51,820 nucleotides of DNA from a virus (IMGVR_UViG_3300046811_000037:1-51820); one strand, 5' to 3'. Counted from the first letter of the stretch, positions 18,984 through 33,027 are shown. The notes: generated by a model from the letters alone, not told the origin. Made by a program: numbers and translations.

Positions 18984-19562
18984 TTACCACCCTACACTCC
19001 GCTTCACAGGTCCGTCAAGAGCCGATAGATACTCCCCAAGGATCTTGTTCCACTTGGAGTCTTCCAGGGCGTTATGGTTTCCGCCAGTCTGAACAGGATA
19101 CCTAGGATTACCGAGTCTATGCAATTCCTGGCGTAGATCATTGGTCCACATAGGCATTCCTTCTGGAAGATCCAGCATCCTGCCGAAAATCTGGCTCAGC
19201 GCAACATGATCATACGCCGCATACCATGCCCAAAATTCTGGAGTACCCTTTTCAAGGCAGAATTTCTTTAGCTCCTTGGCAATGACTTCTCTTGGCTTTA
19301 CCGCGTCGATATCCGGATGATTCATATTCCAGTTAATCGGCCAGATAGTATCGTCGGAGGAATACTCTACAGGTAGGGAATTCATTACATTCTTACGGAG
19401 CCAGTAGTCTCCCCCAGAGACGGTAAACCAGGCTTCGTGCATCAGATTCAAATCTTGTACAACAGCGTAGTAAGTCTTGCCATCTTCTCGGATCATACCA
19501 ATGGAGAGTAGCTCGATCTCCTTACCGGTATCAATAAACTCGGTATCGTACCAAATCTTCAT
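18984..19562 (-). CDS. RNase AS-like 3'-5' exoribonuclease (DEDDh)
   Basis: 192 residues. YDTEFID at the N-terminus gives the first D and E; WYAAYDHVALSQIFG near residues 113-127 supplies the second D region; HNALEDSKWNKIL near residues 163-175 is the final H..D. This is the DEDDh pattern and matches mycobacterial Rv2179c (polyadenylate-specific RNase AS) in order and spacing. It would trim RNA 3' ends in the cytoplasm. It overlaps the HAD gene by four bases. Confidence 0.82.
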   Translation of the reverse strand: MKIWYDTEFIDTGKEIELLSIGMIREDGKTYYAVVQDLNLMHEAWFTVSGGDYWLRKNVMNSLPVEYSSDDTIWPINWNMNHPDIDAVKPREVIAKELKKFCLEKGTPEFWAWYAAYDHVALSQIFGRMLDLPEGMPMWTNDLRQELHRLGNPRYPVQTGGNHNALEDSKWNKILGEYLSALDGPVKRSVGW

Positions 19563-20077
19563 TTATTCCCCACCCATTTCTTGATATTGTCGAAATCTAC
19601 GTCTACCAAACCAATTTTTGGACTGATTTTCATAATTTTAGCGTCAACATCGCAATTTCTTGCCAGAAATTCGGCATCTCGTCCGGTTGGCTCGTCATCA
19701 ATCCAAATAAAATCGCAATTCGGACGGTTTTCCTTCATCCAAGAGACGATTCTCTTGGTTTTAGGATGCAATCCTTCCCAATTCCCAGTATCCCAATCAA
19801 TCCAATCGATAAAACTGAGTTCAGGAAGTCCCAGATGAGGGCCAATCCACTCGTTGGCTTCGTTCTCCCACATGGTGCACCAGATCAGCTCTACCCCTAG
19901 AGCCGTCAATGCCGGGCCGTGAAGGGGGTTTAGCCAGACTTTCAGAGGCTTGGTGGCCACCCAGCCCCTCGGGGTCATTCTGAGCGTCTCATAGCCCTCT
20001 GGGCGCTTCGTAGGTTTTGCAGCAAAAGGATTCAATGGACCATCAACATCCAAAAGAATTACCTTAGATCGATCCAT
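19559..20077 (-). CDS. HAD-superfamily phosphatase
   Basis: 172 residues from the ATG after GAGGAGAATA. LLDVDGPLNPF holds the nucleophile Asp (motif I), WCTMW the motif II Thr, a Lys in the HPKTKR segment motif III, and FIWIDDEPT motif IV. The small cap fits nucleotidase-like or polynucleotide phosphatase-like HAD enzymes. With RNA ligase and exoribonuclease genes nearby, an RNA-end or nucleotide phosphatase role is possible. Confidence 0.82.
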   Translation of the reverse strand: MDRSKVILLDVDGPLNPFAAKPTKRPEGYETLRMTPRGWVATKPLKVWLNPLHGPALTALGVELIWCTMWENEANEWIGPHLGLPELSFIDWIDWDTGNWEGLHPKTKRIVSWMKENRPNCDFIWIDDEPTGRDAEFLARNCDVDAKIMKISPKIGLVDVDFDNIKKWVGNK

Positions 20078-20468
20078 ATTTGATATTCTCCTCATTACAC
20101 CAGGTATGGACGGCTATTATTCTTCCATTTCTTATCATTTGTGTGACAAGATTATGCTTCTTATGCCATTTGACTATTTCCAGAGAGCAATAAGTACAAT
20201 AATATCCTTCAGGGATAATCATTGCCCGCTTTAGTTGCTCTTGCCAGTCCTTCGGATAAAGTGTGTCTCCCTTTCTGTTATTACAAGTCTTATGTGTCAA
20301 TTGAATATTGTCTCTACCGTTACCTCCACCAGCCGCCCGGGGAATAATGTGATCTCTTGAGGCATCCTTGAGTTCAACATATCCACCGCAGAGAGCACAT
20401 ATCCCATGGAAGTCTCTGTGTATCCGTTCCAATGGTTTAGAGTAGTAGGAGCTTTGATTCCTGCCCAT
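20064..20468 (-). CDS. HNH endonuclease
   Basis: 134 residues. CALCGG, then DHIIPRAAGGGNGRDNIQL and HKTCNNRKG form a standard HNH with structural CxxC zinc ligands. A second CTYC...H segment lies in the C-terminal half. It could be a homing-type or packaging-associated nuclease; it lies far from the terminase, so the homing or general nuclease role is more likely. It overlaps the HAD gene. Confidence 0.88.
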   Translation of the reverse strand: MGRNQSSYYSKPLERIHRDFHGICALCGGYVELKDASRDHIIPRAAGGGNGRDNIQLTHKTCNNRKGDTLYPKDWQEQLKRAMIIPEGYYCTYCSLEIVKWHKKHNLVTQMIRNGRIIAVHTWCNEENIKYGSI

Positions 20469-22088: not shown

Positions 22089-22089
22089 C

Positions 22090-22441: not shown

Positions 22442-22445
22442 TTAT

Positions 22446-22516: not shown

Positions 22517-22806
22517 CTTTATAGGTACAATCCACCCTGTTCCGGCACGTTCACAGCTTTCGTCGTCGGGTAGACAGATTGGCGTGGTAATCCCTTCTTA
22601 GCGGTCGGGAAGTTCTCAAGGATATAATAGCTGAGAGAGAACGCCTATAATTTAATATTCCTATATGGGTAGCCGTGACTGGTGAGAGGTGTAGGATAAA
22701 GAGGGAGTAACATTACTACGGATCTTTGCCCTCTGCTTCAGTTTTTGTATTAATGGTTTAGTCGGCTATGCAATTGCATACAATTCTGAAGTATTGGTCT
22801 GACCAA

Positions 22807-22877
22807 TCCCCCATGGTGTAATGGCAGCACAACTGACTTTGAATCAGTTAGACTCGGTTCGAATCCCAGTGGGGGAG
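22807..22877 (+). tRNA. tRNA-Gln (anticodon TTG)
   Basis: TCCCCCA/TGGGGGA acceptor; ACTGA-CTTTGAA-TCAGT anticodon arm. The preceding 290-base spacer (22517-22806) has no gene and is partly closed by TTATAGG/CCTATAA. Confidence 0.9.
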
Positions 22878-22891
22878 CTTGTAGTATCTTT

Positions 22892-22964
22892 GGTCCCGTG
22901 GTGTATGGGAGTAGCATTAATCCCTGTCAAGGATTAGGGGCGGGTTCGAATCCCGTCGGGACCG
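22892..22964 (+). tRNA. tRNA-Asp (anticodon GTC)
   Basis: GGTCCCG/CGGGACC acceptor; AATCC-CTGTCAA-GGATT anticodon arm. Confidence 0.92.
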
Positions 22965-23242
22965 CGTTATCCACCAGTTAGTATTTGGATTCTATGTGAC
23001 AATCTGGAGAATTGCATAGCGGCATAGAAGTGGCGCAGACAAGGGAAGAGGCCACCAGTGAGGAGAACTTACCTAACGGTAGGGCACGAGGGATGAGACT
23101 CACACATAAATTTCATAAACTTATAAGTACCTAATTAACTCCAAGGGAATTAGGGTGCCTACTTGGGCGGGATTAGGACCCAAGGCTATCCGGACGGTGA
23201 GACAAGGTAAGCCAGAGTTGCCGTGGAACTTCTCTGGTGTAT

Positions 23243-23315
23243 GCTCTAGTAGAGTAACGGTGATCTCGCTACCCTCTCAAGGTAGAGATTGCGGGTTCGA
23301 ATCCCGTCTAGAGTA
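23243..23315 (+). tRNA. tRNA-Glu (anticodon CTC)
   Basis: GCTCTAG/CTAGAGT acceptor; CTACC-CTCTCAA-GGTAG anticodon arm. The 278-base spacer before it (22965-23242) holds hairpins but no gene. Confidence 0.88.
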
Positions 23316-23368
23316 CTTTCTACAGGTTCTTACGTCGCCAAAGGTAGAATAGGCCGCCTGTGGTTTAT

Positions 23369-23440
23369 GTCCCCATCGTATATCGGTTAGTATCTGAGAC
23401 TTTCAATCTCAAGGAGAGGGTTCGACTCCCTCTGGGGGTA
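23369..23440 (+). tRNA. tRNA-Glu (anticodon TTC)
   Basis: GTCCCCA/TGGGGGT acceptor; TGAGA-CTTTCAA-TCTCA anticodon arm. Confidence 0.9.
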
Positions 23441-23521
23441 CTTCACAATTGAATAAGCTTTTCCTTTATAATGGGAAGTATGCTATAGCGAGCATCAAAC
23501 CCCTTTCGAAAGGTAAAGCAC

Positions 23522-23821
23522 ATGGCTTTCACTTATACTGTAGTTCGCGTAACTGCTCTTGCAGTTAATGACCAGGTAGCCGGATTCGTTTCCGCCGCTG
23601 GTGGTCCTGCTTTTGTTTTCACGGAGCCAACAGGTACAGGTAATACTTACCCCACAACTGTTAAGTCTATTTTCACTGCTCCACTTCCACCTGGCGATGT
23701 AACTGCTGGTGATTCCCTGACAACTGTTTACCTTAACGGTAATCCGTTCAGTCTTCCAATTGACTTCACCCTCAATGGTCACTCCGACTGGGTGATCAAG
23801 GCTACAGGATCTGCTGCTTAA
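23522..23821 (+). CDS. hypothetical Gly/Thr-rich protein, 99 aa
   Basis: AAAGGTAAAG precedes the ATG. The sequence is Thr-, Val- and Pro-rich and predicted all-beta (FTYTVVRVTAL, then repeated turns with GG and PPG). It resembles in composition the decoration-like proteins at 39415-40631, though no clear motif is shared. Sited alone among tRNAs under its own upstream TATAAT-like element. Confidence 0.7.
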   Translation: MAFTYTVVRVTALAVNDQVAGFVSAAGGPAFVFTEPTGTGNTYPTTVKSIFTAPLPPGDVTAGDSLTTVYLNGNPFSLPIDFTLNGHSDWVIKATGSAA

Positions 23822-23825
23822 GATC

Positions 23826-23870
23826 TTGACACAGACCGAGGCCCGTAGTATCCTCCTTCCTACGGGCCTC
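23826..23870 (+). promoter_or_regulatory. promoter with perfect 11-bp palindrome over the -10
   Basis: TTGACA (23826-23831), 17 bases, TATCCT (23849-23854). Arms GAGGCCCGTAG (23838-23848) and CTACGGGCCTC (23860-23870) enclose the -10. It follows a stop codon by four bases and points to tRNA-Thr. The hairpin could alternatively be a terminator, but no T tract follows. Confidence 0.65.
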
Positions 23871-23934
23871 ACCTATGCCCCTTAACCGGTTGCTCTGCTT
23901 GACTAGGGCAGAGTTTAATGAGATACTAGTCAAT

Positions 23935-24006
23935 GCCCCTATAGCTCAGTGGTAGAGCAGCCGCCTTGTAAGCGGCAGGTCGTGCGTTCAAATCGTACTG
24001 GGGGCT
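23935..24006 (+). tRNA. tRNA-Thr (anticodon TGT)
   Basis: GCCCCTA/TGGGGGC acceptor; GCCGC-CTTGTAA-GCGGC anticodon arm. Confidence 0.93.
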
Positions 24007-24011
24007 CTTTA

Positions 24012-24052
24012 TCCCAACCATTGGAAACTCCAGTGCACAAGGCCCGTTGGGA
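24012..24052 (+). repeat. hairpin in tRNA spacer
   Basis: TCCCAAC and GTTGGGA pair across the spacer after tRNA-Thr, followed by a GCAGAA/TTCTGC hairpin. Confidence 0.5.
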
Positions 24053-24205
24053 GCAGAAAGACTAGGTTCTGCACAGTAACACCTGGCACGGTGGTCTTGA
24101 CACCAAAGATACTTCCGGGGTATCGTTGAAGGGTCAAGAGATAATCCGACTAAACGCTAAAGACCTGTGTATTGGGGCCGGTTGGTGAACCGTAACCCCT
24201 ATTAT

Positions 24206-24279
24206 GCTCCGATATCCCAGCGGCCAGAGGACGCAAGCTCAAACCTTGTGTGTCGTGGGTTCAAATCCCACTCGGAGTA
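24206..24279 (+). tRNA. tRNA-Leu (anticodon CAA), short variable loop
   Basis: GCTCCGA/TCGGAGT acceptor; GCAAG-CTCAAAC-CTTGT arm. Unlike bacterial Leu tRNAs it lacks a long variable arm. Confidence 0.85.
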
Positions 24280-24288
24280 CGGGGTCCA

Positions 24289-24344
24289 TAACAGAGGGGC
24301 CTTACGCTTGACTTAGTCAACCTGGACGCGTAAAATCTCTGTTA
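24289..24344 (+). repeat. tRNA spacer closed by nested stems
   Basis: TAACAGAG/CTCTGTTA, TTACGC/GCGTAA and TTGAC/GTCAA are nested between two Leu tRNAs. Confidence 0.55.
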
Positions 24345-24350
24345 CTTAAT

Positions 24351-24424
24351 GGCCGCATATCCCAATTGGCAGAGGAATTCGACTTAAAATCGAAGTGTTG
24401 TCGGTTCGAATCCGACTGTGGCTA
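24351..24424 (+). tRNA. tRNA-Leu (anticodon TAA), short variable loop
   Basis: GGCCGCA/TGTGGCT acceptor; TTCGA-CTTAAAA-TCGAA arm. Confidence 0.88.
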
Positions 24425-24454
24425 CGTTATATTGCTAGAGAAAAGATACATCAG

Positions 24455-24634
24455 ATGAGTAAGTTTACAGTTGGTGAGAAAGTACGTTTAAAGGAACTTG
24501 ATCGAGAAGGCATTATTACTAGAGTATTTGAAAACTATAAGGGATTTATTCCTGAGCATGACGGCTATATAGTGGACTTTGGTTCCATTGGTCCTAGTGC
24601 AGTTCTTAAAGAAAGTGAATTAATTAAGTACTAA
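24455..24634 (+). CDS. KOW/SH3-like small protein, 59 aa
   Basis: MSKFTVGEKVRLKELDREG and later GYIVDFG fit a small SH3-like barrel, as in ribosomal or NusG-type KOW proteins. It resembles in plan the 60-aa protein at 30132-30314, also among tRNAs. The ribosome binding site is weak. RNA or protein binding is a guess. Confidence 0.65.
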   Translation: MSKFTVGEKVRLKELDREGIITRVFENYKGFIPEHDGYIVDFGSIGPSAVLKESELIKY

Positions 24635-24644
24635 ATCTTACTAT

Positions 24645-24719
24645 GCCTGTGTAGCCCAATTTGGTAGAGGCACTAGTCTTAGAAACTAGGTGTTGCTGGT
24701 TCGAATCCAGTCATAGGTA
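24645..24719 (+). tRNA. tRNA-Leu (anticodon TAG), short variable loop
   Basis: GCCTGTG/CATAGGT acceptor; CTAGT-CTTAGAA-ACTAG arm. Confidence 0.88.
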
Positions 24720-24748
24720 CGTTTTATAATCCAATAGAAGGAGGATCT

Positions 24749-24955
24749 ATGGATATTATGGGAACTCTTGGCCCTTGGGCTTTGATTATCATCGTTGGTT
24801 TGTGGATTCTATTTATGACTCAGAAGCGTGGTTGGAAGTGGCCGCAGATCATTGCGGGAGTTCTTCTAGTTTGTGCGTTGTACAGTCAGTTTCCTACCCT
24901 TCCACAGAGTATTAACTCTGGTATGACTAATATCTACAATTCTATAGCTAAGTAA
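24749..24955 (+). CDS. small membrane protein, possible holin
   Basis: AAGGAGGATC precedes the ATG. Two hydrophobic helices, near residues 7-24 and 31-47, are joined by a basic KRGWKW turn. The short polar tail and position one tRNA upstream of the endolysin make a class II-like holin possible, unproven. Confidence 0.65.
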   Translation: MDIMGTLGPWALIIIVGLWILFMTQKRGWKWPQIIAGVLLVCALYSQFPTLPQSINSGMTNIYNSIAK

Positions 24956-24969
24956 AGCCTTCGGGCTAT

Positions 24970-25040
24970 AGGGTGTTAGTGTAGCGGCAACACAACAGTC
25001 TCCAAAACTGTTATCAGGGGTTCGAATCCTCTACACCCTG
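24970..25040 (+). tRNA. tRNA-Trp (anticodon CCA)
   Basis: AGGGTGT/ACACCCT acceptor; ACAGT-CTCCAAA-ACTGT arm, discriminator G. Confidence 0.92.
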
Positions 25041-25086
25041 CTTTTATAGTAGACTGGTATAAACTAATCTACTATAGGGAGTATAA

Positions 25087-25860
25087 ATGGCTAAGATGCC
25101 AGGAGTAACCTTTATAGGCCCAACACCTAACGAATACGTAGGTGGAATGGTTGCCCATAAGGGATTAGTACTACATATTGAACAAAGCAACAATAATGAT
25201 GCGGTCAACCATTGGTTCATGGATTCTAGTGCCCAAGCGTCTGCTCACTTCACAAATCCAAAGTCAGGCCCTCTGAGTCAAATTGCGGACACAGAAGATG
25301 CCGCTTGGACAGAGAAGGCGGGTAATCGTTATTGGGTATCTGTAGAGCATGAAGGTTATGGTGGTGATTCTCTAACTGCTAATCAGATTGAGAATGACGC
25401 ACAGATCCTAGCTTGGCTTCACAAGACTTATAATGTGCCACTAGAGTCCACTGATAACCCCGATGGGGCAGGACTCGGCTGGCATGGCATGGGTGGGGAT
25501 GCTTGGGGTGGTCACTTTGACTGTCCAGGAGACCCAATAAAGGCCCAGAGAGGCGCTATCATCGCTCGTGCCAAGGAGATTGTAGGGGAGTCTGTTCCAA
25601 CCCCTCAGCCGCCCGTACAGAGCTTCCCAGCTTGGCCTGGTGAATACCTGCGCTTGACAAGTTCTATGCTTCATGACCATAATGTATCTGTCTGGCAGCA
25701 GAAGATGCACGATCGTGGCTGGAATATCAGTGTAGACGGATGGTACGGTCCTGCTTCTGCTAGTATCTGTCGTCAATTCCAGGCAGAGAAGGGCTTGACT
25801 CCGGATGGTATTGTTGGACCAAAGACTTGGGATGCCGCTTGGACTTCCCCAGTTACGTAA
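25087..25860 (+). CDS. endolysin: N-acetylmuramoyl-L-alanine amidase with peptidoglycan-binding domain
   Basis: 257 residues. The N-terminal ~165 residues match Amidase_2: the zinc His in GLVLHIEQ (residue 30), VSVEHEG, and GWHGMGG followed by GGHFDCPGD. The last ~65 residues (VSVWQQKMHDRGW, DGWYGPAS, CRQFQAEKGL, DGIVGPKTW) are a peptidoglycan-binding type 1 repeat. There is no signal peptide, so release probably needs a holin. A tRNA-Trp precedes it and a promoter follows at 25864. Confidence 0.93.
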   Translation: MAKMPGVTFIGPTPNEYVGGMVAHKGLVLHIEQSNNNDAVNHWFMDSSAQASAHFTNPKSGPLSQIADTEDAAWTEKAGNRYWVSVEHEGYGGDSLTANQIENDAQILAWLHKTYNVPLESTDNPDGAGLGWHGMGGDAWGGHFDCPGDPIKAQRGAIIARAKEIVGESVPTPQPPVQSFPAWPGEYLRLTSSMLHDHNVSVWQQKMHDRGWNISVDGWYGPASASICRQFQAEKGLTPDGIVGPKTWDAAWTSPVT

Positions 25861-25863
25861 GAC

Positions 25864-25893
25864 TTGACTTCACTCCCGCAAACATGCTACAGT
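25864..25893 (+). promoter_or_regulatory. sigma70-like promoter
   Basis: TTGACT, 18 bases, TGC-TACAGT (extended -10), directly after the endolysin stop. It would drive tRNA-Asn and the Y RNA region. Confidence 0.6.
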
Positions 25894-25953
25894 AGTGTAA
25901 TCAGCTGAACGGAAGTATAAACAAAGGTTTAGAACACTCCTAGTAGGCTTTAT

Positions 25954-26025
25954 TCCCCTGAAGCCGAATGGTCAGGCAACGCACTGTTAATGCGTGTTAA
26001 GTAGGATCGATACCTACCAGGGGAG
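25954..26025 (+). tRNA. tRNA-Asn (anticodon GTT)
   Basis: TCCCCTG/CAGGGGA acceptor; ACGCA-CTGTTAA-TGCGT arm. Confidence 0.9.
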
Positions 26026-26042
26026 CTTGACAACAATGCGAA

Positions 26043-26160
26043 GATAAGAGATACTTCAAGGGAACCGCGAGTCGTAGGTTCGAATCCTACCCGGCCGAAC
26101 ACTTCGGTTGGTAGCTCAGTGGTAGAGCAGCGGTCAGTAAACTTCTTTTATCACTTTTTT
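26043..26160 (+). ncRNA. candidate Y RNA (YrlA-like) with circularly permuted tRNA mimic, Y1
   Basis: The order is that of a tRNA cut in the anticodon loop and joined through the acceptor: anticodon-stem 3' strand ACCGC (26064), T-arm GTAGG-TTCGAAT-CCTAC, acceptor 3' strand CCGGCCGA, 5-base loop, acceptor 5' strand TCGGTTGG, D-arm GCTC..GGT..GAGC, anticodon-stem 5' strand GCGGT. Outside this, GATAAGAG (26043) pairs with CTTTTATC (26145), with TACT/AGTA between, closing the ends as in a Ro-binding stem. A T6 tract ends it. Bacterial YrlA RNAs have this permuted mimic and lie near rsr genes; a Ro gene lies 300 bases downstream. Confidence 0.75.
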
Positions 26161-26305
26161 CTAGTTGTCTATAACTTAATCTTTCTACCCAATGCGCAGC
26201 TCACGGTTACTTCCTCGCAAATGAAATCATACCGTCAGCGACTTTTTCTAGGGTGGATCATATATTTAGTTCCGATGCGAAAGCAACCTGGTTACTTCCC
26301 CTTTG

Positions 26306-26386
26306 AAATGAGAAACTGACGGTTCGATTCCGTCGTAGGCGTGGCCGCCATACACCAGAAGCTACTATTTCTAGGAACTTATTTTT
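26306..26386 (+). ncRNA. candidate second Y RNA-like transcript, Y2
   Basis: AAATGAG (26306) pairs with CTTATTT (26378), which merges into a T5 tract. Inside, a perfect T-arm GACGG-TTCGATT-CCGTC is followed by a closed acceptor-like hairpin GTAGGCG/CGCC-A-TAC with a TGGC loop, then a weak AGAA/TTCT arm in the D-arm position. The order mirrors Y1 but the D-arm is degenerate. Confidence 0.55.
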
Positions 26387-26392
26387 GAATCC

Positions 26393-26430
26393 TCCCAGCT
26401 ATCCCTGTGATTGGCTGGGATTATTTTTAC
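26393..26430 (+). terminator. terminator before the Ro gene
   Basis: TCCCAGC/GCTGGGA hairpin followed by ATTATTTTTA. It separates the ncRNA region from the TROVE coding sequence. Confidence 0.7.
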
Positions 26431-26462
26431 CTACTAACGTACCACATCACAAGGAGGATGAA

Positions 26463-28055
26463 ATGGCTAAGTTTAATACTGCCGTGAAGATTGGTGTACA
26501 GTCTCCAATCAAGACTACGGGTAAGACTATTAAGAACGCGGATGGTAAGTCTGCCTTCGAGAGGGATACCAAGTCCGAGCTGTTCCTATTGGCAGTATCC
26601 AACTTTGTCGGACAGGATACCTTCTATGAGTCTGCTAAGAATCGCGATGATCGATTCTCTATTCTTTGCCAGAAGGTTGCAGTCGCTGACCCTGCTTGGT
26701 TCCGCAAGTTCGTGGGTTGGCTCCGTAATGGTGCTCAGATGCGCTCTGCGTCCATCGTAGCGGCTGCTGAGGGTGCCAAGGCACTTCTTGACGCTGGAGC
26801 TATGAACGGCTCTCCACGAGCCCTTGTAGCGGCTTCTATGGCACGTGCTGATGAGCCTGGTGAGTTCCTGGCGTACTGGACTTCCAAGTACGGTAAGAAC
26901 CTTCCTCAGGCCATTAAGAAGGGTGTTGCGGACGCGGCCAACCGTCTCTACAATGAGTATTCTCTTCTTAAGTATGATACTGAGACCAAGGGTTTCCGTT
27001 TTGCTGATGTTATTCAGCTTAGCCATGCTAAGGCAAAGGACGCAAAGCAGAACGATCTCTTCGGTTACGCTCTGAACCGTCGCTATGGGAACGTGGGTGA
27101 AATTCCTGCTTCTCTTGAAATGATTGCCAACCGTGATGCTCTTACGGCCCTTAAGGGTGACTTTTCTCCTAAGCGTCTTCTTGCCAATACTGAGTATGCT
27201 CAGATTGTCTTGAAGAAGGCGGGAATGACTTGGGAGTCTCTTGCTGGTTGGCTTCAGGGTCCTATGGACAAGAAGGCTTGGGAGGCTATTATTCCTTCTA
27301 TGGGTTACATGGCTTTGCTTCGTAACCTTCGTAACTTCCAGGAAGCTGGTATTAGTTCCACAGTACTCGATACTGTTCTAATTAAGCTGGCTGATTCTGA
27401 GGAAGTTGCAAAGTCTCGTCAGTTCCCATTCCGATTCCTGTCTGCGTACCAGGCTAACCAGGATAACCTTGAGATTGCGGCTGTACTTGAGAAGGCTCTT
27501 CGTGCTTCTCTGAGTAATGTTCCGGCTCTCTCTGGACGTACGTTGATCCTGGTAGACCGTTCTGGTAGTATGTTTGGAACTCCTGATAAGTCCACTGGAC
27601 TGTCTTGGGCCGATTCTGCTGCTGTCTTCGGTACTGCGCTTGCGCTTCGTGCGGAGGATGCGGATCTGGTACAGTTCGGTAGTGCTTACCGATACAAGGG
27701 TTATGAGCCTGTAACCTTCAAGCGGGGTAACTCTGTTCTTTCCATCCTGAAGAAGTTTAAGGATATGGGTGGAACCGATACAGCTGCGGCTATTCGTGGT
27801 AGCTTTAAGGACCACGATCGTGTTATTATTCTTACTGACGAGCAGTACAACGGTTGGGGTGGAGATCCTACCTCCAGTATTCCTTCCAAGATTCCGGTCT
27901 ACACATGGAATCTTGCTGGATACCGTGCAGCACAGAGTGAGTCTGGTAAGCTGAAGCGTCACACCTTTGGTGGACTGACTGATAAGGCTTGGCAGATGAT
28001 TCCTATGCTGGAAAGTGGGATGACTGGTGTCTGGCCTTGGGATCTGGTAAACTAA
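26463..28055 (+). CDS. Ro60/Rsr-like TROVE-domain RNA-binding protein
   Basis: The ATG after AAGGAGGATG gives 530 residues, the usual length of bacterial Ro (Rsr). The N-terminal ~340 residues are helical-repeat-like (SELFLLAVSNFVGQDTFYE, WFRKFVGWLRNGAQMRSASI) as in TROVE. The C-terminal part is a von Willebrand A domain with the MIDAS motif DRSGS at residues 365-369, later GGTDTAAAI and LTDEQ. Ro proteins are rings that bind Y RNAs and misfolded RNA 3' ends and, in Deinococcus, direct PNPase. Two Y RNA candidates lie just upstream. Confidence 0.9.
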   Translation: MAKFNTAVKIGVQSPIKTTGKTIKNADGKSAFERDTKSELFLLAVSNFVGQDTFYESAKNRDDRFSILCQKVAVADPAWFRKFVGWLRNGAQMRSASIVAAAEGAKALLDAGAMNGSPRALVAASMARADEPGEFLAYWTSKYGKNLPQAIKKGVADAANRLYNEYSLLKYDTETKGFRFADVIQLSHAKAKDAKQNDLFGYALNRRYGNVGEIPASLEMIANRDALTALKGDFSPKRLLANTEYAQIVLKKAGMTWESLAGWLQGPMDKKAWEAIIPSMGYMALLRNLRNFQEAGISSTVLDTVLIKLADSEEVAKSRQFPFRFLSAYQANQDNLEIAAVLEKALRASLSNVPALSGRTLILVDRSGSMFGTPDKSTGLSWADSAAVFGTALALRAEDADLVQFGSAYRYKGYEPVTFKRGNSVLSILKKFKDMGGTDTAAAIRGSFKDHDRVIILTDEQYNGWGGDPTSSIPSKIPVYTWNLAGYRAAQSESGKLKRHTFGGLTDKAWQMIPMLESGMTGVWPWDLVN

Positions 28056-28101
28056 ATCTACACAGTGTCCGAGCGGATCGGACGTAAAGAAAATCCGCAA
28101 T

Positions 28102-28171
28102 GGGGATGCAGCAAGGTGCTAGACAACTTTTGCAAGGTTGTTCGCGGAGAGTTCGATTCTCTTCATCTCCA
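28102..28171 (+). tRNA. tRNA-Ala (anticodon TGC)
   Basis: GGGGATG/CATCTCC acceptor with the G3:U70 alanine identity pair; CAACT-TTTGCAA-GGTTG arm. Confidence 0.88.
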
Positions 28172-28201
28172 CGTCAAGTACATCTATCATAGGAGGAAAT
28201 G

Positions 28202-28417
28202 ATGGGAATTCGCGAGTTCTTTGGTGGTACTAGTCACCCGACGTTCAATGGTACGCCGATTGGTGATCCGATTAACCGTACGCAGGAAGAGATCAATGCT
28301 CGAATGGCTGATGGCATCAATGGCCGGTGTGAGTATGTGAGTCCGCGAGGCAAGCAGTGTAAGGACCCTCGTGAATCCGGTAATTCTCGTTGTACTAAGC
28401 ACATTCGTTACCCGTGA
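28202..28417 (+). CDS. zinc-binding hypothetical protein, 71 aa
   Basis: AGGAGGAAATG precedes the ATG at 28202; an ATG three bases earlier is too close to the Shine-Dalgarno. The C-terminal half CEYVSPRGKQCKDPRESGNSRC then H is a plausible CCCH zinc site of the kind seen in small phage proteins. Function unknown. Confidence 0.7.
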   Translation: MGIREFFGGTSHPTFNGTPIGDPINRTQEEINARMADGINGRCEYVSPRGKQCKDPRESGNSRCTKHIRYP

Positions 28418-28442
28418 TAAACTAGGCGCGAAAGCGCCACCC

Positions 28443-28513
28443 GCCCCTATAACTTAACGGTAAAGTAACAGACTCTTAATCTGTGAATCGGAGTTCAACT
28501 CTCCGTGGGGGTA
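28443..28513 (+). tRNA. tRNA-Lys (anticodon CTT)
   Basis: GCCCCTA/TGGGGGT acceptor; ACAGA-CTCTTAA-TCTGT arm. Confidence 0.9.
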
Positions 28514-28514
28514 C

Positions 28515-28616
28515 GTTAGTAATTGGTTAGCACCTACCTGTGGATACCGGTCATACTAGAATCAATCCGGATGCAGGGCTCTGTAGATAGCTACTACAGC
28601 TGTAAAGGTTACTAAC
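28515..28616 (+). repeat. tRNA spacer closed by a perfect stem
   Basis: GTTAGTAA starts two bases after tRNA-Lys and TTACTAAC ends four bases before the next tRNA; inner CCGG and CTGTAG/CTACAG hairpins are nested. Confidence 0.6.
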
Positions 28617-28620
28617 ACCC

Positions 28621-28692
28621 GCCCCTTAGTGTCCATGGCGGACAATGGGTCTTTTAAACCTAGTGCAGTGGGTTCGATTCCCACAGGGGGTA
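28621..28692 (+). tRNA. tRNA-Lys (anticodon TTT)
   Basis: GCCCCTT/AGGGGGT acceptor; loop CTTTTAA. The next gene's ATG begins two bases after its discriminator. Confidence 0.9.
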
Positions 28693-28693
28693 C

Positions 28694-28831
28694 ATGGATG
28701 AAATATATGAATTTGGTAGTAAGGTAGCTTTTAAGTGTTCCGGATGCGGAAAGACTGAAGGCGGCTTTATGGATAGAGTAGCGGCTCAGGTGGCTCTACA
28801 ATTACATAAGATCGGGTGTAAGAAGAGTTGA
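28694..28831 (+). CDS. 45-aa zinc-finger-like protein, near-leaderless
   Basis: The ATG is at the second base after the end of tRNA-Lys, with no room for a ribosome binding site outside the tRNA. Residues include CSGCGKTEGG and a terminal KIGC, suggesting a zinc ribbon. It ends inside the start of the next gene. If the tRNA is matured by 3' cleavage, the mRNA would start C-AUG. Confidence 0.6.
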   Translation: MDEIYEFGSKVAFKCSGCGKTEGGFMDRVAAQVALQLHKIGCKKS

Positions 28832-29319
28832 TACTACAACCAGGGGACTTCGCAGTAGTCCGAATGAGCGGTGTAGCTGGAAGACTTATACGTTTCGGTC
28901 AGTGGATCAATGGTGATGGATTCAAGGACTATGAGCATGCCTTCGTTTATCTGGGTAATGCGCATATTATTGAGGCTGAACCGGGCGGAGCCAGAGTTGC
29001 TGACGTAACCGAGTACGGCCCCTCTAACGTCCTCTGGTCGTCAGGTAAGGTCATCCTGTCAGATGCGCAGAGATCGGCCGTTGTAGAGGCTGCCAAGAGC
29101 TTTGTAGGGGTACCCTACAGTTTCCTTGACTACCTACTGATTGCTCTCAAGCGTTTTCACATCACAGTACCGATCTTGAACCGTCGTGTGATAGGATCTA
29201 AGCATATGATCTGTTCACAGCTGGTGGCGGAGGTTTACAAGTCTGCTGGAGTTGACTTACTATCAATACCAACATATGAAGTTACACCAGCCGATTTGGC
29301 TAACTTTATAAAAGAATAA
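28828..29319 (+). CDS. permuted NlpC/P60 (YiiX-like) cysteine peptidase family protein
   Basis: A TTG start at 28828 overlaps the previous stop. PGDFAVVR, HAFVYLGN with a central His, IIEAEPGG, VPYSFLDY and MICSQLVAEVY with a Cys fit the YiiX/YebB-like permuted papain fold (C and H catalytic). Such proteins cleave peptide bonds or acyl links, often in cell walls, and could aid lysis or entry. 163 residues, usual length. Confidence 0.75.
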   Translation: MILQPGDFAVVRMSGVAGRLIRFGQWINGDGFKDYEHAFVYLGNAHIIEAEPGGARVADVTEYGPSNVLWSSGKVILSDAQRSAVVEAAKSFVGVPYSFLDYLLIALKRFHITVPILNRRVIGSKHMICSQLVAEVYKSAGVDLLSIPTYEVTPADLANFIKE

Positions 29320-29325
29320 AGAATT

Positions 29326-29398
29326 GCCTCTTTAGCTCAGGGGATAGAGCGTCTGACTACGAATCAGAAGGCCGGGAGTTCGAATCTCTCAAGGGGCA
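29326..29398 (+). tRNA. tRNA-Arg (anticodon ACG)
   Basis: GCCTCTT/AAGGGGC acceptor; TCTGA-CTACGAA-TCAGA arm. The A34 would need editing to inosine by TadA. Confidence 0.92.
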
Positions 29399-29417
29399 CA
29401 GGGATACCTAATCTATG

Positions 29418-29446
29418 TTGACACGCACCCTATAAAGCCTTAATAC
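29418..29446 (+). promoter_or_regulatory. strong sigma70-like promoter
   Basis: TTGACA, 17 bases, TAATAC, 60 bases before the 29507 gene. The same pair recurs at 31627. Confidence 0.7.
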
Positions 29447-29506
29447 ATAGCGCTTCCGCCGGAGAGCGAAACCATCCGGCATTTAGCTTCTAGCACGGAG
29501 GTTACC

Positions 29507-29968
29507 TTGTCTCGTACTCGTAAGGATCGTCCATACTGGGTTCGTGCTAATGATCCAAAGGAACGTAAGACTTACCACCACAATCACATTGTTATTCACC
29601 GTGAGAAGGTGGGGGAACGTAAATATACTTACACACCTGAGACGGTTGAGCGTGACGAGTTTGGTCGTGTAACATGGAGAAGTCCCGAGCGTTCTTGGAT
29701 GATTGCCGTATATAATCGCTGGGCTGAGTATGTAGGATGTAGTATCCATGAGCCTATGACAAAGGGCAGTAATTGGGGTCGAGAAGGATGTTATACTCGT
29801 ACCCTGGAACTGGGGTATGGTTGGCCTAGACATTATGCCAAAAAGGCAGTCAGTCAAGCGAGACGACACAACGTAACGCAGCAGCTACATTTGGCGGTTA
29901 CTAACAAGGACTGGGATGTTGACATTCTGGAGAATCCCTTGTACGCTAAGAACTGTTGGTGGGACTAA
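29507..29968 (+). CDS. basic hypothetical protein, 153 aa
   Basis: A TTG start after CGGAGGTTACC. The protein is strongly basic and aromatic (RKDRPYWVRAND, HHNHIVIHREK, GWPRHYAKKAVSQARRHN). RNA binding is plausible in this tRNA context. No family is recognised. Confidence 0.7.
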   Translation: MSRTRKDRPYWVRANDPKERKTYHHNHIVIHREKVGERKYTYTPETVERDEFGRVTWRSPERSWMIAVYNRWAEYVGCSIHEPMTKGSNWGREGCYTRTLELGYGWPRHYAKKAVSQARRHNVTQQLHLAVTNKDWDVDILENPLYAKNCWWD

Positions 29969-29982
29969 AGATCTATCCCTTC

Positions 29983-30026
29983 ACGCAGAGAGACCGTAAG
30001 GTTTGGGTGAAAGAACGTCTCTGCGT
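29983..30026 (+). repeat. stem closing the space before tRNA-Arg
   Basis: ACGCAGAGA and TCTCTGCGT pair; the right arm ends one base before the tRNA. Confidence 0.55.
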
Positions 30027-30027
30027 T

Positions 30028-30100
30028 GCCTCTGTAGCTCAGTGGATAGAGCAGCAGCCTTCTAAGCTGACGGTCGTAGGTTCGATTCCTACCAGGGGTA
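30028..30100 (+). tRNA. tRNA-Arg (anticodon TCT)
   Basis: GCCTCTG/CAGGGGT acceptor; loop CTTCTAA. Confidence 0.9.
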
Positions 30101-30131
30101 CGCCAATATGGTATATTAGAGGGAGAATAAG

Positions 30132-30314
30132 ATGGCTAATTATAGTGTAGGTGACCGAGTTGTCAATGTTAATATTAGGCATACAGACTTCGATGAGCGA
30201 GCCACTGTTACCGGTAATATTAAGAGTCACTTCCATGGTGATGGTGTTAACGTAAAGAAGGACTTCGGTGGAAGCGCTCAGTGGCTTGAATCTGATATCA
30301 AGTCTACTGTTTAA
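30132..30314 (+). CDS. KOW/SH3-like small protein, 60 aa
   Basis: GAGGGAGAATA precedes the ATG. YSVGDRVVNVNIRH and a later GDGVNVKKDFGG fit a small barrel, like the 59-aa protein at 24455. Confidence 0.65.
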   Translation: MANYSVGDRVVNVNIRHTDFDERATVTGNIKSHFHGDGVNVKKDFGGSAQWLESDIKSTV

Positions 30315-30340
30315 GTACTACCGGCTCTTCGGAGCCACCT

Positions 30341-30413
30341 GCCCGTATAGCTCAGTTGGAAGAGCGCCACTCCTACAAAGTGGATGTCGGGGGTTCAAGT
30401 CCCTCTGCGGGTA
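30341..30413 (+). tRNA. tRNA-Val (anticodon TAC)
   Basis: GCCCGTA/TGCGGGT acceptor; CCACT-CCTACAA-AGTGG arm. Confidence 0.92.
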
Positions 30414-30417
30414 CTTT

Positions 30418-30496
30418 GGGAATAAGATGGATTCGACTAACCGAAAAGCCGCATGCGGAGAGGTTAGGAGCGTGGGTTCGATTCCCACTATTTCCA
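30418..30496 (+). ncRNA. minimal tmRNA-like RNA (tRNA-like domain only)
   Basis: GGGAATA and TATTTCC form a 7-bp acceptor with G3:U70 and A73, the alanine identity set. GGATTCGAC (30429-30437) matches the conserved D-loop of tmRNA 5' ends. CTAACC/GGTTAG stands where tmRNA helix P2 begins, and T-arm GTGGG-TTCGATT-CCCAC completes the tRNA-like domain. The interior is only 19 bases (a CCGC/GCGG minihairpin) instead of about 250-300, so there is no tag frame or pseudoknots. It does not fit a normal anticodon arm. Confidence 0.6.
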
Positions 30497-30541
30497 CGGG
30501 TTTGGTACACCGGTTCGCTATAGGCGATGAAAGTACTACCT

Positions 30542-30618
30542 GCTGCTAGACCTAAATCACAAGGCGTGGTGACACTCTGCAAAAGTGTTGGTTCGGATTT
30601 CGATTATCCCTAGTAGCT
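30542..30618 (+). tRNA. tRNA-Cys (anticodon GCA), unusual D region
   Basis: GCTGCTA/TAGTAGC acceptor; ACACT-CTGCAAA-AGTGT arm; T-loop TTCGATT with one stem mismatch. The D region is longer than usual. Confidence 0.7.
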
Positions 30619-30622
30619 CTTC

Positions 30623-30707
30623 GGAAAAGTGCCAGAGAGGCTTATCGGGCAGTCCTGCTAAGACTGAGGGTGTAAAAGCTCCGTGGGTTCGAATCCCATC
30701 TTTTCCT
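30623..30707 (+). tRNA. tRNA-Ser (anticodon GCT)
   Basis: GGAAAAG/CTTTTCC acceptor; CAGTC-CTGCTAA-GACTG arm; long variable arm. Confidence 0.9.
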
Positions 30708-30721
30708 CTTGTAGTATCAAT

Positions 30722-30804
30722 GGATTGTGCCGCCGGTTGGTCGGCAAGCGGCCTTGAAAGCCGTGGTAGGGTTACACCTAGGGGTTCGACTCCTCCACTC
30801 TCCT
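30722..30804 (+). tRNA. tRNA-Ser (anticodon TGA), mismatched acceptor
   Basis: GCGGC-CTTGAAA-GCCGT arm and long variable arm are clear. The acceptor (GGATTGT/ACTCTCC) has two mismatches at positions 4 and 5. Confidence 0.75.
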
Positions 30805-30810
30805 CTTTAC

Positions 30811-30896
30811 GAATAGGGTCGTACTATGGCCAAGTACAGGGATGCGGTAAGCATCTTGTCCGACGGGACATGAAGGTTCGAATCCTTCTCTATTCA
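30811..30896 (+). tRNA. tRNA-Tyr-like (anticodon GTA), no U33
   Basis: GAATAGG/TCTATTC acceptor, GTAC/GTAC D-stem, long variable arm TGTCC/GGACA. The loop CGGTAAG has G instead of U33, and C32:G38 could pair. Identity is tentative. Confidence 0.6.
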
Positions 30897-30989
30897 CTTT
30901 GGATTTGCTATGAGGCTGCGATGCGCAAAAGCCGCAATTACTACCTGTTAACCGTGAAAATCGGGTGTAGGTCAGGTCAAGTCCAATAT

Positions 30990-31065
30990 GCTCCAGTAGC
31001 CAAGTATGGTGAAGGCCCCATTCTTATAAAATGGTGATGCGTCAGTTCAAATCTGACCTGGAGTA
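30990..31065 (+). tRNA. tRNA-Ile (anticodon TAT)
   Basis: GCTCCAG/CTGGAGT acceptor; CCATT-CTTATAA-AATGG arm. Confidence 0.88.
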
Positions 31066-31115
31066 CGTTGGGTTTTATGCACGGTTCCTAGCACAATAAC
31101 AAAAACCGGCACAAT

Positions 31116-31188
31116 GGGGATGTAGTATAACGGTGCATTACCATCGGCTGATAACCGATAGAAGAAGGTTCAACTCCTTCCATCCCTA
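31116..31188 (+). tRNA. tRNA-Ile (anticodon GAT)
   Basis: GGGGATG/CATCCCT acceptor; ATCGG-CTGATAA-CCGAT arm. Confidence 0.92.
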
Positions 31189-31233
31189 CGTTTCTTTGAT
31201 TAGAAATATAAATGCTAGATTAATCTAGTCATA

Positions 31234-31305
31234 CTTGCTTTGATGTAATAGGTAGCATAACAGATTGTGACTCTGTCAGTGCGGATTCAAGTTCCGTAAG
31301 CAAGA
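31234..31305 (+). tRNA. tRNA-His (anticodon GTG)
   Basis: CTTGCTT/AAGCAAG acceptor; ACAGA-TTGTGAC-TCTGT arm. A G-1 is not encoded. Confidence 0.85.
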
Positions 31306-31422
31306 CTTGAGAAGATAGGCGAGTTCCTAGGAAAACTCACTGATATAAATACTGGACAACTGGCGTGGCGGATGATTAGTAAGCCCAGACATATTCCGCG
31401 ATATATCTTATTCTTCTCTTAT

Positions 31423-31503
31423 GGGAGTATTGAGCAACTGGTTGGCTCGGCGGCCTGTAAAGCCGTTTCTTCGGACTTGGGGGTTCGAATCCCTCTGCTC
31501 CTA
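31423..31503 (+). tRNA. tRNA-Tyr (anticodon GTA)
   Basis: GGGAGTA/TGCTCCT acceptor; GCGGC-CTGTAAA-GCCGT arm with U33; long variable region. Next gene's ATG begins two bases after the discriminator. Confidence 0.88.
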
Positions 31504-31504
31504 C

Positions 31505-31819: not shown

Positions 31820-31990
31820 ATGAACATGGATAAGTTTTTGGGTAACGAAGTAACTCGTTGGAATAGTTCCAATGTGCCGCTTGAGTTACACCAGCACTTG
31901 CGAATGAGCTGGGAAGAATGTAAGATTTGGTCCAAGACGGGAGAGCTTCCCAGGAATATGGCGGCTCGCTGGGGATTTAAGGAGGAGTAA
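31820..31990 (+). CDS. hypothetical protein, 56 aa
   Basis: A basic, Trp-rich helical protein (MSWEECKIWSKTGELP). Its TAA overlaps the ligase ATG by one base, so the two are coupled. Confidence 0.65.
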   Translation: MNMDKFLGNEVTRWNSSNVPLELHQHLRMSWEECKIWSKTGELPRNMAARWGFKEE

Positions 31991-33027
31991 TGAAGCTATG
32001 GGATCTTTTCGATAAGAAGCTTTTTCACAGAATGATAGAGGACGGTTATATTCGTATTCGAGAGAATGAGTGTGGTTCTCTTCGTATCTTAGGGTATACC
32101 GAGAAGGCCCAATTTGACAGTGAATGGAACGAGGTTACTAAGCAGTGCCGTGGAATTGTCGTAGACCGACAGGATAATGTAATAGCGCGTCCCTTTGATA
32201 AGTTCATGAATTATGGGCAGAACCAAGCAGACTTGCTTCTTATGGATTACGCGGTTGAGGTAACCGATAAGATGGATGGTTCCCTTGGAATCTTGTTCTT
32301 CCACAAGATCTGGGATACAGCTACTCGTGGCTCTTTTGCATCCGAACAAGCATATGAGATGCAGAAGATCCTGAGCGACAAGTATACGGGTATTGAGTTG
32401 AATCCCGCGTGGACTTACCTTTTCGAGATTATCTACCCGGGTAATCGTATTGTCCTTGATTATGGTGATACTAGAGATCTGTATCTATTGGGAGCACGCC
32501 ATATCGAGACAGGCTCTATACGGGCCGCTAAGGACGTGGAGGAGTGGTATGGTCCTAAGACCCCCACTTACCCCTTTGCAACGCTCTCAGAGGCCCTTGC
32601 AGCCCCTCCTAGAGCCAACGCTGAGGGTTACGTAGTCTACTTCCCGGATCTGGACTATCGAGTAAAGATCAAACAGGAAGATTATGTGCTCTTACATCGT
32701 ATCGTTACAGGTTTGACTGCTCGCAGGATTTGGGAGAATATGAAGGAAGGTAAGAACCTATTCGACCTTCTAGAGATCGTTCCAGACGAATGGCACGAGT
32801 GGCTTGTCGGTAACTATGACAGTATCGGCGATATTTGGAGCGCCACCATGGATCTGATTGAAGCGGACTACGATAAGATTATTGAAATACTTCCTAAGGA
32901 CTTCACGCGCAAGCAATTTGCAGAAGTGGCCAAGACTTCGGACTATACGGGTTTTATGTTCATGCTATTAGATAATAAAGATATTAGTGACAAGGTTTGG
33001 GATTTAGTTCGCCCTTCTGCTGAGTAA
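31990..33027 (+). CDS. T4 Rnl1-like RNA ligase
   Basis: 345 residues. KMDGSLG holds the motif I nucleophile Lys94 that is adenylylated. CRGIVVD (residues 53-59) precedes it, YLFEIIYPGNRIV fits motif IIIa/III, and EGYVV.. then VKIKQEDYVLLH fit motifs IV and V. It would seal 5'-phosphate and 3'-hydroxyl RNA ends, classically repairing tRNAs cut by host anticodon nucleases. The adjoining 32-gene tRNA array fits that role. Confidence 0.9.
   Translation: MKLWDLFDKKLFHRMIEDGYIRIRENECGSLRILGYTEKAQFDSEWNEVTKQCRGIVVDRQDNVIARPFDKFMNYGQNQADLLLMDYAVEVTDKMDGSLGILFFHKIWDTATRGSFASEQAYEMQKILSDKYTGIELNPAWTYLFEIIYPGNRIVLDYGDTRDLYLLGARHIETGSIRAAKDVEEWYGPKTPTYPFATLSEALAAPPRANAEGYVVYFPDLDYRVKIKQEDYVLLHRIVTGLTARRIWENMKEGKNLFDLLEIVPDEWHEWLVGNYDSIGDIWSATMDLIEADYDKIIEILPKDFTRKQFAEVAKTSDYTGFMFMLLDNKDISDKVWDLVRPSAE

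What the first reader, a model, noticed from the sequence alone, without database searches (positions are those of the whole stretch)
26043..28055. Ro/TROVE gene with an adjacent YrlA-type Y RNA containing a circularly permuted tRNA
A tRNA-like element is permuted: T-arm and acceptor 3' strand precede acceptor 5' strand and D-arm, all arms pair, and an outer stem with a T tract closes the ends. This is the architecture of bacterial YrlA RNAs, which bind Ro. A Ro-like gene with vWA MIDAS lies 300 bases downstream. Together they form a complete phage-encoded Ro ribonucleoprotein beside a large tRNA array, which could steer host exonucleases or protect phage tRNAs. Phage Rsr genes have, to my recollection, been noticed before, but this locus in this context may not be characterised.
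Basis: partly seen in the sequence, partly recalled or inferred. Interest (0 to 1): 0.9.

Follow-up and report, generated by a model that had tools for sequence, protein, structure and literature searches.

The report
Phage Ro gene with Y RNA array
This virus of soil bacteria carries its own Ro protein together with three small Y RNAs in a row, one of them a rearranged tRNA look-alike; the same package sits in many related phages and in bacterial chromosomes, so it is a real RNA-protein machine of a known kind, larger than first noticed, whose job during infection is still untested.

Summary
The gene at 26463-28055 is a Ro/TROVE protein with an intact vWA MIDAS; its model matches Thermus phage phiLo Ro60 (Z 26.9), vertebrate Ro60 (about 24) and Deinococcus Rsr (21). 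Upstream, same strand, lies not one Y RNA but three: Y1 26029-26169 (YrlA-type, full permuted tRNA module), Y2 26184-26257 (minimal hairpin) and Y3 26268-26379 (T-arm and acceptor-like hairpin, no D-arm). All share a core: closing stem S1, conserved TGCG loop, stem S2, conserved TACTTC, U-rich return strand. The 'T tract' is an internal-loop motif, not a terminator. Forty-sequence covariation is decisive (0.572 against 0.170 shuffled). All 88 related viral-collection loci and all 80 actinobacterial chromosomal loci carry at least one such element upstream of Ro; covariance-model hits lie almost only beside Ro. Known kind: bacterial and phage Ro-Y RNP. Most likely mechanism, inferred: a Ro particle tethered by Y RNAs to nucleases or tRNA-handling enzymes, alongside phage RNA-repair genes. 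Side finding: phage DUF2828 'Ro-like' genes carry a different (CAGCAA) hairpin array resembling Dictyostelium Class I RNAs.

The parts
26029..26169 (+). Y1: YrlA-type Y RNA. S1 26029-26034/26164-26169; loop motif AATGCGAA 26035-26042; S2 26043-26050/26145-26152; TACTTC 26052-26057; anticodon-stem-like 26064-26068/26130-26134; T-arm 26074-26090; acceptor-like hairpin 26091-26111; D-arm 26114-26128; U-rich return loop 26153-26163
   Evidence: Rfam YrlA 43.5 bits; own model R1 115 bits (training member); covariation over 40 sequences; structure descriptor
26184..26257 (+). Y2: minimal Y RNA without tRNA module. S1 26184-26190/26251-26257; TGCG motif; S2 26203-26207/26231-26235; TACTTC 26208-26213; CTTTTTCTA return loop
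   Evidence: Model R2 68.8 bits (training member) and model R1, in which it was not used, 41.4 bits, E=7e-10; orthologues in relatives with covarying stems
26268..26379 (+). Y3: Y RNA with partial tRNA mimic. S1 26268-26273/26374-26379; GATGCG; S2 26288-26292/26354-26358; TACTTC 26293-26298; T-arm 26318-26334; GC hairpin about 26337-26350; no D-arm
   Evidence: Hit by both models though used to build neither: R2 38.9 bits E=3e-9, R1 33.2 bits E=2e-7; orthologues in 10 relatives, several with a D-arm
26463..28055 (+). Ro60/Rsr protein, 530 aa: HEAT-repeat TROVE domain plus vWA domain (MIDAS D365-x-S367-x-S369, T438, D459)
   Evidence: Pfam, PHROGs; MIDAS residues conserved in alignments; AlphaFold2 pLDDT 87, pTM 0.84; VIA Z 26.9 to phage phiLo Ro60, 23.8 to Ro60, 21.3 to D. 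radiodurans Rsr
26027..26055 (+). Promoter-like TTGACA-N17-GATACT lying inside the 5' strand of Y1
   Evidence: same spacing in 15 of 15 Y1 orthologues of the close phage family
25954..26026 (+). tRNA-Asn immediately upstream of Y1, in an array of 28 tRNA genes (21435-31504)
   Evidence: ARAGORN, Rfam
31990..33027 (+). T4 Rnl1-like RNA ligase, candidate functional partner
   Evidence: PF09511 E=2.6e-12, PHROG 562 E=1.8e-71; PF09511 found in 10 of 20 Ro phage records, 9 of them in the close family of 11
19559..20095 (-). HAD_SAK_2 protein (HAD domain of RNA repair proteins), candidate end-healing phosphatase
   Evidence: Pfam PF18143 E=5e-9
18984..19562 (-). Rv2179c-like 3'-5' exoribonuclease, candidate nuclease partner
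   Evidence: Pfam PF16473 E=5e-12

Best explanation
The locus encodes a phage Ro ribonucleoprotein: one Ro protein and three different Y RNAs on the same strand just upstream of it. Shown computationally: the Ro fold, the three RNAs, their common core (S1, TGCG loop, S2, TACTTC, U-rich return strand), its covariation, and close linkage to Ro genes. Inferred from the Ro-Y family: Ro grips the S1-S2 core of each Y RNA on its outer surface, so that the Y RNA gates access of other RNAs to the ring, while the variable apical part acts as a handle. In Y1 the handle is a closed permuted tRNA with an intact elbow (T-loop TTCGAAT, D-loop GG) but no anticodon loop and no CCA end, suited to recruiting PNPase, as shown for Salmonella Rsr/YrlA and Deinococcus Rsr/Y RNA, or tRNA-binding enzymes. 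During infection the particle would hand structured or cleaved RNAs, probably including broken tRNAs, to decay or repair together with the phage's own RNA ligase, HAD phosphatase and exonuclease. Three Y RNAs with different handles would give one Ro several interchangeable partners.
For: Ro fold and domains. Covariation in every variable helix of the YrlA class and in S1 across the array (90% paired versus 53% with partners shuffled). At least one Y element upstream of Ro in 88 of 88 viral-collection loci and 80 of 80 chromosomal loci. R2 hits: 135 of 135 on the Ro strand and upstream of Ro in 587 kb, and beside Ro in the 18 of 20 whole phage records that had hits. PNPase tethering by Rsr and YrlA is published (PMC9879122, PMC7790460). 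RNA ligase, HAD_SAK_2 and 3'-5' exoribonuclease genes lie in the same record.
Against: No expression, binding or processing data. The tether/repair role rests on bacterial homologues and gene neighbourhood. RNA ligase is absent from many Ro phages outside the close family. Y1's 5' strand also reads as a sigma-70 promoter, so a shorter transcript is possible. Structure models cannot show RNA binding.
Confidence: 0.6

Rival explanations
1. Decoy: the tRNA-like Y RNAs occupy host tRNA-targeting enzymes (anticodon nucleases, modification enzymes), sparing tRNAs; Ro merely stabilises them.
For: The tRNA-like domain of Salmonella YrlA has been proposed as a competitive inhibitor of an anticodon nuclease (PMC7790460). 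The window has 28 tRNAs, an Rnl1-like ligase and a HAD_SAK_2 protein. T- and D-loop residues are invariant.
Against: Y1 has no anticodon loop; Y2 has no tRNA module and Y3 only part. Most Ro-Y loci lie outside tRNA arrays.
Confidence: 0.2
2. Leader regulation: the array is a structured 5' leader that titrates Ro and autoregulates its mRNA; stable free Y RNAs are secondary.
For: The array is directly upstream of Ro on the same strand in nearly all loci, with no clear terminator between.
Against: Salmonella has rsr before yrlBA (PMC7790460). In phage Gilson the Y RNAs lie about 0.7-2 kb upstream, separated from Ro by other genes. tRNA-like modules are not needed for a leader.
Confidence: 0.12
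3. The 5' half of Y1 is mainly a promoter (TTGACA-N17-GATACT) and the RNA starts after TACTTC, so Y1 would lack its Ro-binding stem.
For: Perfect -35, 17-nt spacer and GATACT in 15 of 15 close orthologues.
Against: The partner strand downstream covaries (GACAAC/GTTGTC versus GACAGC/GCTGTC) and S2 covaries in all 8 pairs; Y2, Y3 and host Y RNAs keep the same motifs without TTGACA. Both roles could coexist.
Confidence: 0.08
4. Degenerate tandem tRNA genes that mimic a permuted tRNA by chance.
For: It lies in a tRNA array; ARAGORN calls tRNAs inside 25 Y elements in relatives.
Against: Acceptor-like helix with double changes in 9 of 9 pairs, sliding controls fail; conserved core and Ro linkage; present in loci with no tRNAs.
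Confidence: 0.01

Closest known systems
YrlA RNAs and the rsr-yrlB-yrlA-rtcBA operon of Salmonella (Chen et al. 2014, cited in PMC7790460 and PMC12282133; PMC9879122)
   Same: Ro gene beside tandem Y RNAs, one with a permuted tRNA-like domain; RNA-repair genes nearby; Y RNAs already reported from bacteria and mycobacteriophages
   Different: Here the array precedes Ro, has three members including one without D-arm, and the ligase is T4 Rnl1-like rather than RtcB; score below Rfam's YrlA cut-off
Chromosomal Ro-Y loci of Streptomyces, Kitasatospora, Rhodococcus and others (loci L118-L197)
   Same: About 51-55% Ro identity to the phage profile's query, same TGCG/TACTTC core, YrlA-type plus minimal Y RNAs upstream of Ro
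   Different: 1-3 elements rather than mostly 3-5 in the window's phage family; return loop usually TTGATCT instead of TTTTTCTA; separate clade in the Ro tree
Ro-Y loci of Streptomyces phages BRock, GiJojo, pSt2308, Alone3
   Same: Same gene order, tRNA array, 62-64% Ro identity, orthologous Y RNAs
   Different: They carry one or two more Y RNAs; the Y RNAs are unannotated or, in part, annotated as tRNAs in GenBank
Ro60 of Thermus phage phiLo (PDB 9kop, 9l5y)
   Same: Phage-encoded Ro, same fold (Z 26.9)
   Different: 27% identity; no Y RNA found in that record with model R1 or R2
Deinococcus radiodurans Rsr, Y RNA and PNPase (PDB 2nvo; summarised in PMC6340977 and PMC7790460)
   Same: Ro fold, Y RNA beside Ro, proposed tether mechanism
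   Different: No biochemical data for the phage

Membership tests
Ro60/Rsr (TROVE) proteins | TROVE HEAT-repeat domain followed by a vWA domain | tested here: met
   Pfam TROVE over cut-off; vWA weak by sequence (24.2 bits against cut-off 27) but clear by fold, Z 21-27 to Ro structures over 430-476 residues
Ro60/Rsr (TROVE) proteins | MIDAS motif DxSxS...T...D | tested here: met
   D365, S367, S369, T438, D459 invariant in 34 sequences
Ro60/Rsr (TROVE) proteins | Binds Y RNA on the outer surface and misfolded 3' ends in the ring | not testable with these tools
   Needs biochemistry
Bacterial Y RNA | 5' and 3' ends paired, conserved Ro stem with internal loop, encoded beside Ro | tested here: met
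   S1/S2 core in Y1-Y3, covariation, linkage
Bacterial Y RNA | Stable small RNA bound by Ro in cells | not testable with these tools
   No RNA-seq or pull-down available
YrlA subclass (Y1) | Circularly permuted tRNA: T-arm, acceptor strands joined by a loop, D-arm | tested here: met
Rfam RF02553 YrlA (Y1) | Rfam gathering score of 69 bits | tested here: not met
   43.5 bits, E=2e-8; host actinobacterial Y RNAs also score only 32-44. Filed as a YrlA-type Y RNA by architecture, not as an RF02553 member by Rfam's own rule
YrlA subclass (Y3) | Complete permuted tRNA including D-arm | tested here: not met
   D-arm missing in window, L020, L021 and L023, degenerate in L016

The most novel reading that the evidence does not exclude
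Ro-superfamily proteins and arrays of short hairpin RNAs with a paired end-stem and an adjacent invariant motif form one widespread system with at least two branches: TROVE Ro with TGCG/TACTTC Y RNAs (this window), and DUF2828/DUF7788 'Ro-like' proteins with CAGCAA RNAs in hundreds of phages. The second branch resembles the unexplained Class I RNAs of Dictyostelium. In both branches several RNAs with different apical handles, some of them tRNA mimics, would adapt one protein ring to different partners during infection.
Probability: 0.35. Interest if true: 0.85.

Novelty: new member of a known kind. Interest (0 to 1): 0.5.

Why it matters
Phage Ro proteins have been annotated for years, but no Y RNA is annotated in the phage records read here, and some are mis-called as tRNAs. 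A structural model that finds Y RNAs almost only beside Ro makes the phage Ro particle directly testable in culturable Streptomyces phages such as BRock and GiJojo: delete single Y RNAs and see which partner or phenotype is lost. It also bears on why one Ro needs several Y RNAs and why some of them imitate tRNA.

Tried and rejected
Megablast of the locus against phage records found nothing; protein and structure-based searches were needed. Free-energy folding alone is weak (z -1.5 to -2.1 for the three RNAs, and the opposite strand of Y3 folds even better), so it was not used as proof. The structure descriptor without sequence motifs is not specific (55% of control anchors pass at score 22); specificity comes from TACTTC density (2.9 against 0.25 per kb), the TGCG motif (210 of 250 against 8 of 221 control hits) and the covariance models. 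The idea that the T tract is a terminator was rejected. The idea that the module serves tRNA arrays was rejected as a general rule. Recent capture from a Streptomyces host was not supported: the window's Ro sits in a 12-row phage clade (100/100) outside the Streptomycetaceae chromosomal clade (99/96), though deeper forks are weak. I expected the very abundant ncRNA of Listeria phage CKA15 (PMC12282133) to be its Y-like array; coordinates show it is not. Some IMG/VR loci from L024 on may be bacterial chromosome rather than virus, so phage-only claims rest on L002-L010, L015-L023, L051, L095, L096 and L098. The key papers by Chen et al. (2014) and by Sim and colleagues (2018, 2020) are not held; what I say of them comes from citing papers and memory.

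Full report
WHAT IS THERE. The window is a 51.8-kb virus fragment with terminase, portal and major head protein genes and 28 ARAGORN tRNA genes at 21435-31504. The ORF 26463-28055 encodes a 530-residue Ro protein: Pfam TROVE 66.4 bits, PHROG 850, 62-64% identical to annotated 'Ro-like RNA binding protein' genes of Streptomyces phages GiJojo, BRock, pSt2308, Alone3 and LuckySocke. Its AlphaFold2 model (pLDDT 87, pTM 0.84) best matches Thermus phage phiLo Ro60 (9kop Z 26.9, rmsd 4.2, 440 aligned; 9l5y), then vertebrate Ro60 (Z about 24) and Deinococcus Rsr (2nvo Z 21.3), far above the next group, single vWA domains at Z 13.

Y1. Rfam's YrlA model aligns across it (43.5 bits, E=2e-8) although below the family's gathering score. 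A further 6-bp stem, GACAAC 26029-26034 with GTTGTC 26164-26169, closes the RNA. Between the two stems lie a conserved 5' motif (A/G)ATGCG and a conserved 3' U-rich motif that contains the T tract. The T tract is therefore part of an internal loop next to the Ro stem.

Y2 AND Y3. The same signature, S1 - xATGCGxAG - S2 - TACTTC ... S2' - (C)TTTTTCTA - S1', occurs twice more before Ro: 26184-26257, a minimal hairpin without tRNA parts, and 26268-26379, with a T-arm and a GC-rich acceptor-like hairpin but no D-arm. Y3 is hit by both covariance models although used to build neither (R2 38.9 bits, E=3e-9; R1 33.2 bits, E=2e-7), and Y2 by R1, in which it was not used (41.4 bits, E=7e-10). No further Y RNA was found in the record at these thresholds. 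In orthologues of Y3 a D-arm is present in some phages (L003; L002, L005, L017 and L018 with a variant form) and missing in the window, L020, L021 and L023, so it is a tRNA mimic that appears to have lost one arm in this lineage.

MORE THAN CHANCE. On a MAFFT alignment of 40 YrlA-type elements (A2) the structure taken from the window gives 87.4% paired cells and a covariation score of 0.572, against 0.170 (sd 0.010) with 3' letters shuffled and at most 0.191 with partners slid by 1-3 columns. All 9 acceptor-like pairs and all 8 S2 pairs show changes on both sides; T-arm and D-arm pair in every sequence. This disposes of the rival that two decayed tandem tRNAs happen to lie side by side. S1 across 31 distinct elements pairs in 90% of cells against 53% when partners are shuffled, maximum 66%. 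TACTTC is about 12 times denser in the 1 kb before Ro than elsewhere (2.9 against 0.25 per kb), and the TGCG motif, not used in the descriptor, is present in 210 of 250 elements against 8 of 221 control structures, some of which look like true Y RNAs.

LINKAGE TO RO. At least one element lies upstream of Ro in 88 of 88 related viral-collection loci (81 of 88 with the TGCG motif; one to seven per locus). With model R2, 135 of 135 hits in 587 kb are on the Ro strand and upstream of Ro. Over 20 whole phage records, 18 have hits and every hit lies beside Ro. Model R1 finds Y RNAs outside its training set beside Ro in Arthrobacter phage Atuin, Xanthomonas phage 10KY502B (three YrlA-type; a minimal one by R2), Streptomyces phage Gilson and mycobacteriophage Ewok. 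The same module is found in all 80 chromosomal actinobacterial Ro loci fetched, with one to three elements. In a 60-row tree the window's Ro belongs to a 12-row phage clade (100/100), apart from the Streptomycetaceae chromosomal clade (99/96), so it looks like an old viral lineage rather than a recent capture.

CONTEXT. tRNA arrays are not required: 52 of 92 loci have no tRNA within about 4 kb. The record also encodes a T4 Rnl1-like RNA ligase (31990-33027), a HAD_SAK_2 RNA-repair phosphatase (19559-20095, minus) and an Rv2179c-like 3'-5' exoribonuclease (18984-19562, minus). The ligase recurs in most of the close family. An overview of jumbo phages had already placed TROVE proteins among RNA-repair systems (PMC7824862).

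MECHANISM. Published facts: in Deinococcus, Y RNA tethers Rsr to PNPase; Salmonella Rsr and YrlA bind PNPase; YrlA was suggested as a decoy for an anticodon nuclease (PMC7790460, PMC9879122, PMC6340977). From the sequence: Y1 keeps the tRNA elbow (T-loop TTCGAAT, D-loop GG) but has no anticodon loop and no free acceptor end, so it can present an elbow but cannot be charged or cut at an anticodon. I infer that the phage makes a Ro particle whose S1-S2 core holds the protein and whose handles recruit different partners, PNPase-type nucleases or tRNA enzymes being the most likely, to deal with structured or broken RNA in infection. Expression, binding and phenotype are not shown. One ambiguity deserves a direct test: in all 15 close orthologues the 5' strand of Y1 also reads TTGACA-N17-GATACT, a promoter geometry.

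KNOWN OR NEW. Ro genes in phages, Y RNAs in bacteria and mycobacteriophages, and tandem YrlB/YrlA in Salmonella are known; a phage Ro60 structure was released in 2025. This is a new member of that kind, with a larger and more varied Y set than the finding suggested. New as far as I could tell, but not proven so because key papers were not readable: the shared TGCG/TACTTC core as a marker of Ro loci, and the repeated mis-calling of Y RNAs as tRNAs (25 ARAGORN calls; GenBank tRNA features in L002, L005, L008, L009 and L095).

SIDE FINDING. Phage proteins of the DUF2828/DUF7788 family, called 'Ro-like' in mycobacteriophages and present in 671 phage records, lie beside their own tandem hairpins with the motif S1-(N)ACAGCAA...S1' in 10 of 11 phages examined, up to seven in Aeromonas phage LAh_6, some with the permuted tRNA module. 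All seven LAh_6 elements, and others in Klebsiella, Listeria and Staphylococcus phages, align end to end with Rfam's Dictyostelium Class I RNA (19-30 bits, each below the gathering score). Class I RNAs have the same plan, a short end stem and an adjacent 11-nt motif, ending in CUGU (PMC7919456). Whether this is homology or convergence is open.

Noticed in passing
L111 4219-4902, L112 1934-2367, L113 3972-4228, L114 2762-2972, L115 2328-2475, L110 6165-6431 (minus), L097 2826-3374, L199 991-1958: Tandem CAGCAA hairpin RNAs beside DUF2828/DUF7788 'Ro-like' genes in E. coli, Enterococcus, Mycobacterium, Staphylococcus, Campylobacter, Listeria, Klebsiella and Aeromonas phages; some carry a permuted tRNA module. 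Minimal ones align with Rfam Dictyostelium Class I RNA.
   Followed up: partly
L110 7073-7624 (minus), Listeria phage P100 124072-124623: Rfam ROOL RNA, 86 bits (gathering 99), E=5e-16. By offset this is CKA15 about 26197-26748, i.e. the 26,236-26,727 region whose extremely abundant unexplained ncRNA was tentatively called Y RNA in PMC12282133; it is more likely ROOL.
   Followed up: partly
L002 3769-3843, L005 3774-3847, L008 3745-3835, L009 3704-3775, L095 3439-3506: Features annotated as tRNA (Arg, Ser, Pro, Arg, Thr) in GenBank phage records overlap Y RNAs; 25 ARAGORN calls do so across the loci.
   Followed up: yes
window 30418-30499: 82-nt element matching the two ends of the tmRNA model (47.4 bits, gathering 47): GGATTCGAC near the 5' end and a T-arm near the 3' end, but no room for a tag reading frame or pseudoknots; a tmRNA-like tRNA domain without the mRNA part.
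   Followed up: no
window 26027-26055: Sigma-70 promoter geometry TTGACA-N17-GATACT embedded in the Y1 stem, conserved in 15 of 15 close orthologues but not seen in the host Y RNAs read.
   Followed up: partly
L003 6079-6242, L005 5967-6199: manA RNA motif (RF01745, 48-50 bits, below gathering 55.2) between tRNA-Lys genes of the phage tRNA array.
   Followed up: no
PMC12282133, protein CKA15_055: The DUF2828 Ro-like protein of Listeria phage CKA15 was detected in purified virions (20 peptides, 57% coverage), so a Ro-like protein may enter the cell with the particle.
   Followed up: no
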